A stretch of DNA of 64,000 bases from Mycolicibacterium porcinum (GTDB taxonomy: Bacteria > Actinomycetota > Actinomycetes > Mycobacteriales > Mycobacteriaceae), in assembly GCA_001942045.1 (NCBI GenBank), contig MSTD01000015.1, positions 1 through 64,000 on the forward strand, read 5' to 3'. Below are positions 60,376 to 64,000 of the stretch, in pieces (the first letter of the stretch is position 1; each line of letters starts with the position of its first letter). The notes beneath the pieces are model-generated. The model made no database searches, had not been told where the DNA came from, and was given only the letters and a program-made list of their open reading frames with translations. Made by a program: the position numbers and the translations under genes.

Positions 60376-63300
60376 ATGTCGCTGACAGATTGGATGAGCG
60401 ATAAGGAAGCCGAATGGCGTGATCGGCTGAAGCCGGTCAACCTCGTCATCGAAGCGAACTTCTCGGCCGACGAAGTGAAGACCGCTCAGAGCAAATATGG
60501 CGCCGCCGCGCACCACCTGATTGCTCGGGATTGGTCGTATGACGAGATCATCAAGCGGTATCCCGCGCTGACCGTGATGGTTCTCGTCGGACACGCTGCA
60601 CTTGCGTATGACCACGGGGCCTACTGGGAGAGCTTCTGGGAAGAGCTCGGCTTGCCCCGCGACGCGGACTTCGAGAATGCGATGCGACACCACTTCGTCG
60701 AATTGCTCACGAAGTTTTCGCTCGCCCGGTTTCCTAAGATCGAAAGGGACACCGCGCGCAAGTACGTAATGACGTTCGCGTTGCATGCCGGCATCCCGGT
60801 GCATTGTTTACGCGACCTCCTCACCGTGATCAATGACCACATCACCCAGGGCCGCCCCGCCAAAGGCGCCGCAGTTATGGAATGGCTCGAAGAACCCGGC
60901 AAGGAACACCGAGCTGCAGGTTTGGACATGCCAGTACGCAACTTCCTCGTCAACGGTGGAGAGTTCGCTGCCGACATCCTCGACCGGATTATCGAGTTCG
61001 TTGAGGAAACAACCGCTGACCCCAACGTCTTCGACAGGGACTTGAGTTCGTCGACCACCGGCCTGCCACGCGTGCTGCTCGAGGAGCTGGTGCTGCAGCT
61101 GCGGGAGAATCCGTTGCGGTTCGAACGGAAGCGCCTCGTCGCCAACAATGCGCTCAATCCTCGGATCACCTACAACGTCGACGACGACGAGATTGTGTTG
61201 GTTCTTCCGGCTCCCCAGGTAGACCGGGATCTACCGTGGCGGGTTTCGTTCGACGGCGAGGTCCGACATGTGCAAAGCGCCCGCCGGTGGGGTGGTGATG
61301 CGCAGACCGCTAGCGCGCAAGTATCAGTTCCTGGGCCGGTCCGCGAGGCAGTTCTGTCACATCCCGGGATCGGAGCCGGTTCCGTGCTTCCCCTTGTGGT
61401 CAACTCTGACCCGCTGTTCACGTTCGACAAGGCTGGGCGGTGGATTCCGAAACGCGACGGTTTGAAGGACTGCGTCTGGGCAGTCTTTCCCGCCAATCAC
61501 CAGCTGGTGGACGGCGACACCCTCAGCCCGGTCGACATCCGAGATGACGGGGCCCCGGCAGGATGGCACGGCTGGCGGAGCGCCTTCATTGAGCTCGATC
61601 GGGTCGGCTCGTTGCAGCTGTTCCACAACGGCCAGCCGGTCGGCAGCCAGCGTTCGGTGCGGAAGGATGCGCGACCAACCTTCGAGTTGGGCCCCACCGT
61701 GACGGGAATCGTTACGGCGGACGGCCGATCCGTGCACAGCGAGCGGCCATGGGTCATGCTTCCGCCGTCCCAAACCGAGCCTGGCCCAGACTGGATTGTG
61801 CGGGTCCGCCGCTTTGGCGACACCGAGTGGATTGCTGAAGAGTCGTGGACAGGTGAAGACGTCGAGACCTGTGTCGATCCATTCGACGACGCAGAGGGGC
61901 CTCACCTTGGGCTATTTGAGGTCCTGGTAACAGGTCCCCTCGGATCTGACGCCCGCTGTGTGGTATTCGTCGCCGAGGGCCTCGACACGACTTTCGATAC
62001 CCCGATTCGTGTTCCGATCCACGGCGGGTTTACTCCTTGCACGGCTCAGATCACCGCGGACGGTTTTTCTGAAGCACCGTCAGACCCAATTACCTTCGGC
62101 CCGCGAAGTCTTGAGGTTGAGATTCGCCTGGCCACGGCGGATGGTGTTGCGTCCGTGCTACTCAAACCACCTCATGTGGAGATTCGTACCGGGGAATCTG
62201 GCATTCCTGCTGCGTGGAGAATGACCGCGGACGTGCTCGATCCGGACGATTTCACGCAGGACCGTTTTGTGGCGGTCCGCGCACCCGGCATCGAGACCGC
62301 TGAGTTCGGTTACTTTTCCGAGCTGGGCGACCTGCTGCAGGTCGACCCCAGCCCACGAAAACGCCAAGGAGATGTCTTCGAGAGCCGGCTTCAGCAGTTC
62401 GCCGACACGGTTCGAAGTCATCCGACCGGCACGATCGTGGCGACGTTGAGAACCGACATCGGGACCATCGCAGTCAACGTGCTATCTGCCCAGCCACGTC
62501 GCCTCGCGGCAGGTGTGAGCCTGCACGAGGATCTACTGAAATTCACGCAGGTGGCGGCTGTCGCGGATCTTGCGGCCTATGTATGGAGCGCTACGGCACC
62601 TTGGCGTCCGGCCGAGGTTCTGCCAGTCGTCGACGGAACTGCAGCCCTACCGGCTCATCTCGTCGATGCGGGCGAGTTACGGTGTCAGCTGTTTGTCGAC
62701 GATCCGTGGGTGTTCATCGACCCGCCAGCTGTGCCAGGCGAGACGGCCTTCCAGATCGAGCAATTCGGCTGGCGCGAGGACGGCACTCCCGCCCAAGTGC
62801 AGCTGTCCCGTTATCTGGGTGGTCCACGCCGAGCCCCGGTGGAAGTTGGTGCCATCCCGGAGGTCTGGGCCGCATTAGCGAGGTTGCACGCCGACGGTAA
62901 AGCTGATCGGTTCGCAGGGCTGATCGTCCTTCTGGCTGATGAGCCAAGGAAAGCGCTGGAATGTTTGGGGCACAGCACAATTCCCGCGGGCGAAAAGATG
63001 GCGATGCTTATCCGTAGCGAGCTCGTCAACCGCGACTTTGCGATCGACCAGACCCATAACGAATTGCATTCGCATCCATGGTTCGGCTGCATGGTCGAAC
63101 TCGCCGACTTGGTGTCGCTCCACCGCCGTCAACACGAGGTGCGAGCCGAGCGCGCTGAAACCCTTGCTTACCTATGGGATCGAGCGGGACAACCGCTGAT
63201 GGAGCTGTTGAGGACAGGCAAGTCGGCCAGCATTGATGACGCCTGCTTTGACGCCAAAGTGTTCGCGATGAGTGGGGTACCGGGGAATCAGGTTGAGGCG

Positions 63301-63759
63301 AAATTGCGTGAGATCCAGCTGGCACCGCGTGCGCAACTGCACCCGGAAACGATGAGGATCGCGATCTACGAGGCATTCTGCCGGCGAACCGAATGGATAG
63401 CATCTGGATGGACTCCCAACTTCGCCAAACAAGCGTCGTGCGTGGTCAACCCGATCAAACGCGCATCGCCCCGCGCGCACGAAGCGATCATCATGCGCAG
63501 CGATCGAGTAGGCAAGATCGACATCTCCGAGAACCCATGGATGCTGATGTCCGTGCAATCTCTGACGCTTGCACTACTCGCCAGGCTCGAAGCGCACGGG
63601 AGAATCGGTGGTCAGTATCTGAACTCTGGCCTGCTGGGTGACTGGGCACGGATGGCGCAACTCTGTCCGTCGATGGTAGCCAACGATCTACTGATTGCTG
63701 AAGCGCTTGTATTGCACGACCGTCGTGGTGATCTGACTGGAGGAGACAGTGATCGATAG
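60376..63759 (+). CDS. 1127-residue protein of unknown family, DruH-like candidate
   Basis: The start at ATG 60376 has only a weak site. The N-terminal 220 residues are helical (KYGAAAHHLIARDWSYDEII, LTVMVLVGHAALAYDHGAYW, AGIPVHCLRDLLTVINDH, MPVRNFLVNGGEFAADIL). The middle 250-800 is beta-rich with repeated Trp/Gly/Asp loops, suggesting several immunoglobulin-like or lectin-like modules. The C-terminal 300 is helical again. I find no catalytic motif. Its last 11 bases overlap the start of a DUF1998-type helicase gene. A large protein without known domains followed directly by such a helicase is the DruH-DruE arrangement of type III Druantia anti-phage systems; assignment rests on context and size, not on a search. 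Confidence 0.7.
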   Translation: MSLTDWMSDKEAEWRDRLKPVNLVIEANFSADEVKTAQSKYGAAAHHLIARDWSYDEIIKRYPALTVMVLVGHAALAYDHGAYWESFWEELGLPRDADFENAMRHHFVELLTKFSLARFPKIERDTARKYVMTFALHAGIPVHCLRDLLTVINDHITQGRPAKGAAVMEWLEEPGKEHRAAGLDMPVRNFLVNGGEFAADILDRIIEFVEETTADPNVFDRDLSSSTTGLPRVLLEELVLQLRENPLRFERKRLVANNALNPRITYNVDDDEIVLVLPAPQVDRDLPWRVSFDGEVRHVQSARRWGGDAQTASAQVSVPGPVREAVLSHPGIGAGSVLPLVVNSDPLFTFDKAGRWIPKRDGLKDCVWAVFPANHQLVDGDTLSPVDIRDDGAPAGWHGWRSAFIELDRVGSLQLFHNGQPVGSQRSVRKDARPTFELGPTVTGIVTADGRSVHSERPWVMLPPSQTEPGPDWIVRVRRFGDTEWIAEESWTGEDVETCVDPFDDAEGPHLGLFEVLVTGPLGSDARCVVFVAEGLDTTFDTPIRVPIHGGFTPCTAQITADGFSEAPSDPITFGPRSLEVEIRLATADGVASVLLKPPHVEIRTGESGIPAAWRMTADVLDPDDFTQDRFVAVRAPGIETAEFGYFSELGDLLQVDPSPRKRQGDVFESRLQQFADTVRSHPTGTIVATLRTDIGTIAVNVLSAQPRRLAAGVSLHEDLLKFTQVAAVADLAAYVWSATAPWRPAEVLPVVDGTAALPAHLVDAGELRCQLFVDDPWVFIDPPAVPGETAFQIEQFGWREDGTPAQVQLSRYLGGPRRAPVEVGAIPEVWAALARLHADGKADRFAGLIVLLADEPRKALECLGHSTIPAGEKMAMLIRSELVNRDFAIDQTHNELHSHPWFGCMVELADLVSLHRRQHEVRAERAETLAYLWDRAGQPLMELLRTGKSASIDDACFDAKVFAMSGVPGNQVEAKLREIQLAPRAQLHPETMRIAIYEAFCRRTEWIASGWTPNFAKQASCVVNPIKRASPRAHEAIIMRSDRVGKIDISENPWMLMSVQSLTLALLARLEAHGRIGGQYLNSGLLGDWARMAQLCPSMVANDLLIAEALVLHDRRGDLTGGDSDR

Positions 63760-64000
63760 GCTCGACCCCCTCGACACCGCCAAAGAAATCGAGGGCAGCT
63801 ACAAGCGGTACCTAAAGACCCTCCTTGCACCACGCGACGAGCAGCTCGCCGCAGCATTCGACGCCGAGATCGACGCCAGCACCCTGCTGACCAAGGGGCC
63901 GATCCTCGAGCTGACCCCGCCCTACGAGACCGGCGCGACGTGTCGCCAGCTCATCGGCGAGGGGGTGCTGCACCCAGACTTCGCTCGGATCGATAGTCAA
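63749..64000 (+). CDS. N-terminus of a large DruE/DUF1998-type DEAD-box helicase (cut by window edge)
   Basis: GTG 63749 follows AGGAG and overlaps the previous gene by 11 nt. The frame is open to the window end (84 residues visible): MIDRLDPLDTAKEIEGSYKR, YLKTLLAPRDEQLAAAFDAE, then TKGPILELTPPYETG and LIGEGVLHPDF. This RYLKT...RD...KGPxLExTPPY...LIxEGVL pattern is what I associate with the N-terminus of large helicases of the DruE/DUF1998 class. The helicase motifs themselves must lie beyond the edge. Confidence 0.65.
   Translation, partial: MIDRLDPLDTAKEIEGSYKRYLKTLLAPRDEQLAAAFDAEIDASTLLTKGPILELTPPYETGATCRQLIGEGVLHPDFARIDSQ

What the first reader, a model, noticed from the sequence alone, without database searches (positions are those of the whole stretch)
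60376..64000. Two-gene Druantia type III-like anti-phage module, cut by the window edge
A 1127-residue protein without recognisable catalytic motifs overlaps by 11 nt the start of a gene whose visible 84 residues carry the KGPILELTPPY and LIGEGVL pattern of DruE/DUF1998 helicases. Order, tight coupling, size and location in an accessory island agree with DruH-DruE. If the large protein is not a DruH homologue, this is a new partner for a DUF1998 helicase and still worth study.
Basis: partly seen in the sequence, partly recalled or inferred. Interest (0 to 1): 0.8.

Follow-up and report, generated by a model that had tools for sequence, protein, structure and literature searches.

The report
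Mycobacterial Druantia III-like phage-defence pair
The window ends inside a two-gene bacterial defence system against viruses, a relative of Druantia type III whose helicase in related strains lacks the DNA-cutting part of the best-studied version; it is a new member of a known kind, not a new system.

Summary
An intact 1127-aa ORF (60376-63759, +) overlaps by 11 nt a GTG-started ORF (63749) that leaves the window after 84 aa. Those 84 aa are a DruE N-terminus (76 of 84 identical to L060). In 22 of 22 mycobacterial loci with a full-length homologue of the large protein, a DruE-type helicase follows at once. The large protein matches no Pfam, NCBIfam or PADLOC model, DruH included, but is 26-28% identical to the clade that holds the M. 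smegmatis DruH shown to stop phages (PMC13316683). Its link to E. coli DruH/YjiT is weak but collinear. I file it as Druantia type III-like, fitting the mostly nuclease-less branch called III-B in PMC12458937: in L001 and L002 DruE ends 23-29 residues after MZB, leaving no room for the PLD domains of E. coli DruE. Most likely DruH senses a phage structural protein and DruE attacks or occupies phage DNA ends. New member of a known kind, unseen by PADLOC 2.0.0. Side finds: an optional third HExxH gene (5 of 22 genomes) and half-length DruH variants.

The parts
60376..63759 (+). druH-like gene, ATG, 1127 aa, stop included; clade 1 of mycobacterial DruH
   Evidence: Intact ORF; 183 homologues; full length in 22 of 396 genomes, each followed by druE; 28% identical to clade-2 L022, E 1e-68; AlphaFold pLDDT 90.4
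60376..61161 (+). DruH residues 1-262: helical N-terminal region
   Evidence: Model secondary structure; the part with the best profile match to E. coli DruH (P 0.00056; reversed control P 0.1)
61162..62775 (+). DruH residues 263-800: beta core with Ig-like domains
62776..63756 (+). DruH residues 801-1127: helical C-terminal region; D1104 is invariant in the 107 rows of both clades counted
   Evidence: Model; conservation; missing from the half-length DruH forms
63739..63746 (+). GGAGGAGA, ribosome-binding-site-like, before the druE start
   Evidence: Sequence; by eye, no statistical test
63749..64000 (+). druE 5' end, GTG start, 84 aa visible, 11-nt overlap with druH, cut by the window edge
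   Evidence: PADLOC DruE4/DruE2/DruE1 N-termini, best E 1.8e-4; 76 of 84 identical to L060
56766..59864 (+). Neighbour, not claimed as part of the pair: type IV-like restriction gene (PLD-like, ResIII/Helicase_C, DUF3427), 1032 aa
   Evidence: PADLOC mREase_IV 1088 bits; Pfam; directly upstream of druH also in L068 (78% identical)

Best explanation
A two-gene Druantia type III-like anti-phage system that fits the nuclease-poor III-B branch. DruH (helical N-terminus, Ig-like core, helical C-terminus) most likely recognises a phage structural protein in infection. It then licenses DruE, an SF2 helicase of the YprA/MrfA type whose translation is probably coupled through the overlapping start. DruE loads on phage DNA with 3' single strands and moves along it; this stops genome circularisation and replication and ends in an abortive outcome. 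Shown here: gene pair, overlap, homology, DruE without room for PLD domains in relatives, parallel divergence of the two genes. Shown by others in relatives: defence, block of circularisation, activation by a minor tail protein (M. smegmatis); preference for 3'-tailed DNA (E. coli DruE). Inferred: that the window's pair acts alike, and that in this branch DruE occupies or unwinds ends rather than cutting with a domain of its own.
For: DruE follows DruH in 22 of 22 full-length loci, overlapping or abutting; orthologous DruE carries DEAD, Helicase_C and MZB and best matches PADLOC DruE profiles; 26-28% identity to the clade of the tested M. smegmatis DruH, whose identity rests on 9 of 11 published residues fitting P0174 at the offset expected from the lengths; defence, circularisation block and tail-protein activation in that system (PMC13316683); collinear profile match to E. 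coli DruH, 75.8% with model secondary structure against 0.1% reversed, same helical-beta-helical layout in both models; DruH less conserved than DruE in 230 of 231 locus pairs, as expected of a sensor; mosaic island with a restriction-type neighbour.
Against: No PADLOC DruH or NCBIfam YjiT model hits the protein; without secondary structure the link to E. coli DruH is only 4.1-15.7% and the C-terminal region does not align at all; BLASTP finds nothing. Most published loss-of-function residues of DruH are not conserved in this clade. In E. coli DruE is described as a helicase-nuclease and DruH has nuclease activity, so the nuclease-less mode is unproven. No anti-phage test of this clade is known to me, and most of the window's own druE is unseen.
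Confidence: 0.78

Rival explanations
1. A separate defence system: a DUF1998 helicase with a large Ig-like partner that is not homologous to E. coli DruH and resembles it only in size, order and general layout. The published mycobacterial 'type III' label would then be a functional analogy.
For: No PADLOC, NCBIfam or BLASTP link to E. coli DruH; the actinobacterial DruE rows lie apart from E. coli DruE in a quick tree; the C-terminal regions do not align.
Against: The best profile alignment runs along the main diagonal over 757-777 columns, far above reversed controls; the layout agrees; same gene order and helicase family.
Confidence: 0.13
2. A decayed or inactive copy: druH is intact but druE is broken beyond the window edge.
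For: Short druH remnants exist in three other genomes of the genus (29, 40 and 56 aligned residues), so the system is lost at times.
Against: 1127 intact druH codons; the 96% identical P0001 has the same length; no stop in the 84 visible druE codons. PMC13316683 reports that DruH alone is toxic and DruE neutralises it, which should select against losing druE only.
Confidence: 0.05
3. A DNA-repair helicase pair, like MrfA/YprA or SftH with a partner, without a role against phages.
For: MZB is the MrfA zinc-binding domain; PMC13316683 found that SftH (MSMEG_6160) can replace DruE in its cassette.
Against: Patchy distribution (full length in 22 of 396 genomes) in a mosaic island; DruE profiles score far above other helicases; the homologous pair protects M. 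smegmatis.
Confidence: 0.04

Closest known systems
M. smegmatis mc2 155 DruH-DruE, MSMEG_1253/MSMEG_1254 (PMC13316683)
   Same: Gene order, short overlap, DruH size (1132 against 1127 aa), DEAD/Helicase_C/DUF1998 helicase, mycobacterial host. Full-length homology of the DruH proteins through P0174 and L022.
   Different: Another DruH clade, about 27% identical (mean 24% between clades over 57 pairs); DruE there has 1667 aa, in 17 of 19 clade-1 relatives 1541-1554; most mutated DruH residues are not conserved.
Druantia Type III-B, the distinct branch of Type III-like systems (PMC12458937)
   Same: YprA-type helicase, most frequently without any nuclease domain; the actinobacterial DruE rows form one side of the tree at 100%.
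   Different: Nothing contrary found; the named reference GIH50614.1 could not be fetched, so membership rests on description.
E. coli Druantia type III (III-A): DruH/YjiT and DruE (PMC13192584; L030; PDB 9tud, 9tu7)
   Same: Gene order, DruH size, helical-beta-helical layout, weak collinear profile match; YprA-type helicase.
   Different: E. coli DruE has 2104 aa with two C-terminal PLD domains; DruH has no BLASTP similarity; L030 lies beside Zorya II, which was not looked for around the mycobacterial loci.
ARMADA and DISARM (PMC12458937)
   Same: YprA-family helicase with DUF1998 and defence context.
   Different: Two-gene arrangement with DruH; helicase rows fall apart from the ARMADA-like rows in a quick tree; PADLOC scores DruE 614 bits against DrmA 57.

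Membership tests
Druantia (any type) | DruE: SF2 helicase with DUF1998/MZB | tested here: met
   For the orthologues in L001 and L002; for the window only the N-terminal 84 aa
Druantia type III | DruH encoded directly upstream of DruE | tested here: met
   Window arrangement and 22 of 22 relatives, taking DruH in the sense of PMC13316683; DruH identity by homology to clade 2
Druantia type III | Found by a PADLOC-DB 2.0.0 DruH profile (operational criterion) | tested here: not met
   No family at E<=1 for the window protein, none at E<=10 for L021-L024; E. coli DruH hits ten. Hence filed as type III-like
DruH/YjiT family (NF038336) | Sequence homology to E. coli DruH/YjiT | tested here: inconclusive
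   BLASTP none; NCBIfam none; hhalign 4.1-15.7% without and 75.8% with model secondary structure, reversed 0.1%
DruH/YjiT family (NF038336) | Fold of 9tud | tested here: inconclusive
   No DruH row for the window model, but the E. coli DruH model lists none in its 50 rows either; layout agrees
E. coli-type Druantia III (III-A) | Two C-terminal PLD domains in DruE | tested here: not met
   In L002 and L001 DruE ends 23 and 29 residues after MZB; not visible for the window itself
Druantia type III-B (PMC12458937) | Distinct helicase branch, most frequently without nuclease | tested here: inconclusive
   Nuclease-less as described; actinobacterial rows one side at 100%; reference GIH50614.1 not compared
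Druantia III of M. smegmatis | Protection against phages | not testable with these tools
   Needs plating tests; shown for a clade-2 member in PMC13316683
[quoted passage not shown]
   Left neighbours in the window are a restriction-type gene and ordinary genes; the right flank of druE is not in the window

The most novel reading that the evidence does not exclude
This clade is a minimal, nuclease-free Druantia that works by DNA-end occupation: DruH senses a tail protein, and a DruE without a nuclease of its own loads on the 3' single-stranded cohesive ends of incoming mycobacteriophage DNA and keeps them from annealing. This joins two published facts (block of circularisation in M. smegmatis; 3'-tail preference of E. 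coli DruE) with the missing PLD domains. In some strains a third, HExxH gene would add a further arm.
Probability: 0.2. Interest if true: 0.65.

Novelty: new member of a known kind. Interest (0 to 1): 0.4.

Why it matters
It extends the experimentally known mycobacterial Druantia to a second DruH clade, found in full length in 19 of 396 genomes of the genus (clade 2: 3 of 396). Neither clade is seen by PADLOC-DB 2.0.0 DruH models, so a survey that takes DruH from PADLOC calls, like the one in PMC13192584, probably misses both. It gives a natural test of whether Druantia III needs a nuclease domain in DruE, and the half-length DruH forms show which parts of DruH can be absent. Mycobacteriophages are tried against drug-resistant mycobacteria (recalled), so genes that limit them are of practical interest.

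Tried and rejected

Rejected: a new partner for a DUF1998 helicase (homology to a published system); ARMADA or DISARM (scores, gene pair); a chance ORF (homologues, synteny).

Left out before counts: of the 26 genomes, four partial matches (G369 at a contig end; G006, G304, G154 remnants) are not in the 22. Alignment A1 took 106 of the 240 proteins P0001-P0240 plus the window protein; A3 took 32 of the 40. The half-length DruH set leaves out L135, where no DruE hit followed. Searches scored two candidates per genome only, so I draw nothing from there being one match per genome.
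Full report
Observation. The ORF, its 11-nt overlap and the 84-aa DruE start are as described. The 84 aa hit four PADLOC DruE profiles at their first residues (best E 1.8e-4) and match the DruE starts of L060, L061 and L057 at 76, 75 and 71 of 84 positions. The 1127-aa protein hits nothing in PADLOC, NCBIfam or Pfam.

Relatives. A genome-contig scan confirmed two loci, both Mycobacterium (M. angelicum L001, Mycobacterium sp. ACS4331 L002), with a 1549- and a 1542-aa helicase right after the homologue that carries DEAD, Helicase_C and MZB and scores best with PADLOC DruE1 (E 4.8e-181 and 2.4e-184). 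The protein search gave 183 homologues at E<=1e-3; those of the 120 listed that bear an organism name are mycobacterial, M. marinum, M. canettii and M. smegmatis MKD8 among them. In the genus search 26 of 396 genomes matched: 19 full-length at 50-73% identity (clade 1, the window's), 3 full-length at 26-27% (clade 2) and 4 partial. In 22 of 22 full-length loci the next gene on the same strand is DruE, overlapping or abutting.

Link to a tested system. PMC13316683 (read: outline, sections 2.1-2.5, 2.7, 2.8, Discussion and found passages) reports that M. smegmatis MSMEG_1253/1254 (1132 and 1667 aa, 17-bp overlap) protects against phages, blocks phage DNA circularisation and is activated by a minor tail protein; DruH alone is toxic and DruE neutralises it. 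I could not fetch MSMEG_1253 by name. Of 11 residues named there, 9 fit P0174 (M. smegmatis, 1060 aa, clade 2) at offset 72 = 1132-1060; the next best of the 240 proteins then held fits 7, and the MKD8 protein P0038 fits 4. So the tested DruH belongs to clade 2, and M. smegmatis strains carry DruH of either clade. The window protein and clade-2 L022 align at 28% over 916 columns, E 1e-68. Of the residues named there only D1108 is kept (window D1104; 59 of 59 clade-1 and 48 of 48 clade-2 rows); D240 is E or D in 45 of 59 clade-1 rows; the others are not conserved in clade 1. At this distance the mapping is uncertain, and several of these residues vary in clade 2 too.

Link to E. coli DruH. E. 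coli DruH (L030, beside Zorya II) hits ten DruH3 models and NF038336 and is solved as 9tud. BLASTP with the window protein shows nothing significant. hhalign of profiles gives 15.7% (P 0.0017, 777 columns) or, with other rows and columns, 4.1% (P 0.01, 757 columns); with secondary structure from both AlphaFold models 75.8% (P 0.0066), against 0.1% for the reversed profile. The N-terminal region alone gives P 0.00056 (29.9%), or 69.9% with secondary structure, against 0.5-0.6% reversed; the core 27.3% against 0.2%; the C-terminal region 0.3% against 0.2%, that is nothing. The alignment runs along the main diagonal (40-866 against 43-915) and pairs YVMTFALHAGIP with YLHTLACEGGLP. The models, pLDDT 90.4 and 82.4, share a helical N-terminus, a beta core and a helical C-terminus. 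I take this as probable, not proven, homology. Foldseek and VIA gave Ig-like proteins for the window model; the control with the E. coli model shows no DruH row either, so 9tud is probably not in that library.

Type. PMC12458937 (read: outline, sections on new classes, domain architectures and nucleases, and found passages) sets apart a branch of Type III-like systems whose helicase most frequently has no nuclease, and a legend names Type III-A and III-B. In L002 and L001 the MZB match ends 23 and 29 residues before the C-terminus. Counted from the residue aligned to L002 residue 1, 17 of 19 clade-1 DruE have 1541-1554 aa; L074 and L075 have 1647 and 1651; the three clade-2 ones 1658-1668. E. 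coli DruE has 2104 aa with two PLD domains (PMC13192584). In a quick tree the 34 actinobacterial DruE rows form one side at 100% support and clade 1 at 100%. This fits III-B; the named reference was not compared.

Evolution. Over 231 locus pairs DruH is less conserved than its DruE in 230; mean identities are 57% and 72% within clade 1, 24% and 46% between the clades. PMC13192584 (read: outline, sections on DruE, DruE cleavage, DruH and phylogenetic methods, and found passages) reports the same trend for its own set and reads it as phage-driven selection on a sensor. That survey took DruH from PADLOC annotation.

Mechanism. Shown by others: defence, tail-protein activation and circularisation block in M. 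smegmatis; preference of DruE for 3'-tailed DNA, DruE nuclease activity and dimer-dependent DruH nuclease activity in E. coli. Note a disagreement between them: DruH and DruE interact in the M. smegmatis study, while no stable complex was seen in E. coli. Inferred here: in the nuclease-less branch DruE acts by occupying or unwinding phage ends, or DruH does the cutting. The data do not decide between these.

Surroundings. Synteny with the four relatives fetched (L153-L156) breaks between 53.4 and 54.8 kb. One of them, L153, has the neighbouring restriction-type gene at 80% DNA identity, and its match ends at 59866, before druH; its genome G126 had no DruH match. So the pair sits in a mosaic island.

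Variants seen. In five loci (L131-L134, L136) a half-length DruH of 558-661 aa stands before a DruE of 1546-1597 aa; it lacks most of window residues 150-330 and all from about 800 on. In five of the 22 genomes a further gene of 376-425 aa with an HExxH motif follows druE within about 70 nt, and it was found nowhere else in those 22 genomes.

Print search. Searches for Druantia with DruH, DruE, ARMADA, Mycobacterium, DUF1998 and III-A/III-B led to the three papers above. I saw no report of this DruH clade as distinct, of the half-length DruH or of the third gene in what I read; supplements were not open to me.

Noticed in passing
L061, L062, L067, L069, L071, directly after druE (e.g. L067:6083-7312 -): Optional third gene on the same strand within about 70 nt of druE in 5 of 22 genomes, found nowhere else in them: 376-425 aa, motif RHE[LI]FHF, no Pfam or PDB hit; the C-terminus looks RelE-like (recalled). 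Broken by a frame change in G001 and by a TGA in G041.
   Followed up: partly
L131:7347-9023, L132:7233-9089, L133:8944-10692, L134:8944-10794, L136:8941-10926: Half-length DruH (558-661 aa) before a DruE of 1546-1597 aa; a gene nearby in L132 and in L134 matches Wadjet JetB.
   Followed up: partly
L137:720-13297 (-): DruH and DruE separated by three genes of 556, 272 and 682 aa on the same strand; the 682-aa one begins like an Hsp70 ATPase (GIDFGTTNS, recalled), PADLOC hit weak.
   Followed up: no
L104:8839-16853 and L105:8371-16619: A second DruE-like helicase in G001 and in G208, in the same contig within 20 kb of druHE; in L104 followed by a DpdE/DrmD/BrxH-type helicase gene, which looks ARMADA-like.
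   Followed up: partly
L080:8001-8168, L081:9998-10117, L082:10016-10102, L083:9875-10057: druH remnants: only the first 29, 40 or 56 residues of clade 1 in three genomes, and an inner piece of about 60 residues of clade 2 in a fourth.
   Followed up: partly
P0038 and P0174: Proteins named M. smegmatis fall in both DruH clades: MKD8 in clade 1, P0174 in clade 2.
   Followed up: no
window 56766-59864 (+): Type IV-like restriction gene (PLD-like, ResIII/Helicase_C, DUF3427); a relative sits directly before druH in L068 (78%), and one in L153, whose genome G126 had no DruH match.
   Followed up: partly
window 55237-56592 (-): 451-aa ORF without any family hit in PADLOC, Pfam or NCBIfam, at the edge of the island.
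   Followed up: no
window 43704-44747 (-): 347-aa protein that joins an ERCC4 domain with an Lsr2-type DNA-binding domain; a 77% identical relative in L081, which also holds a druH remnant.
   Followed up: no
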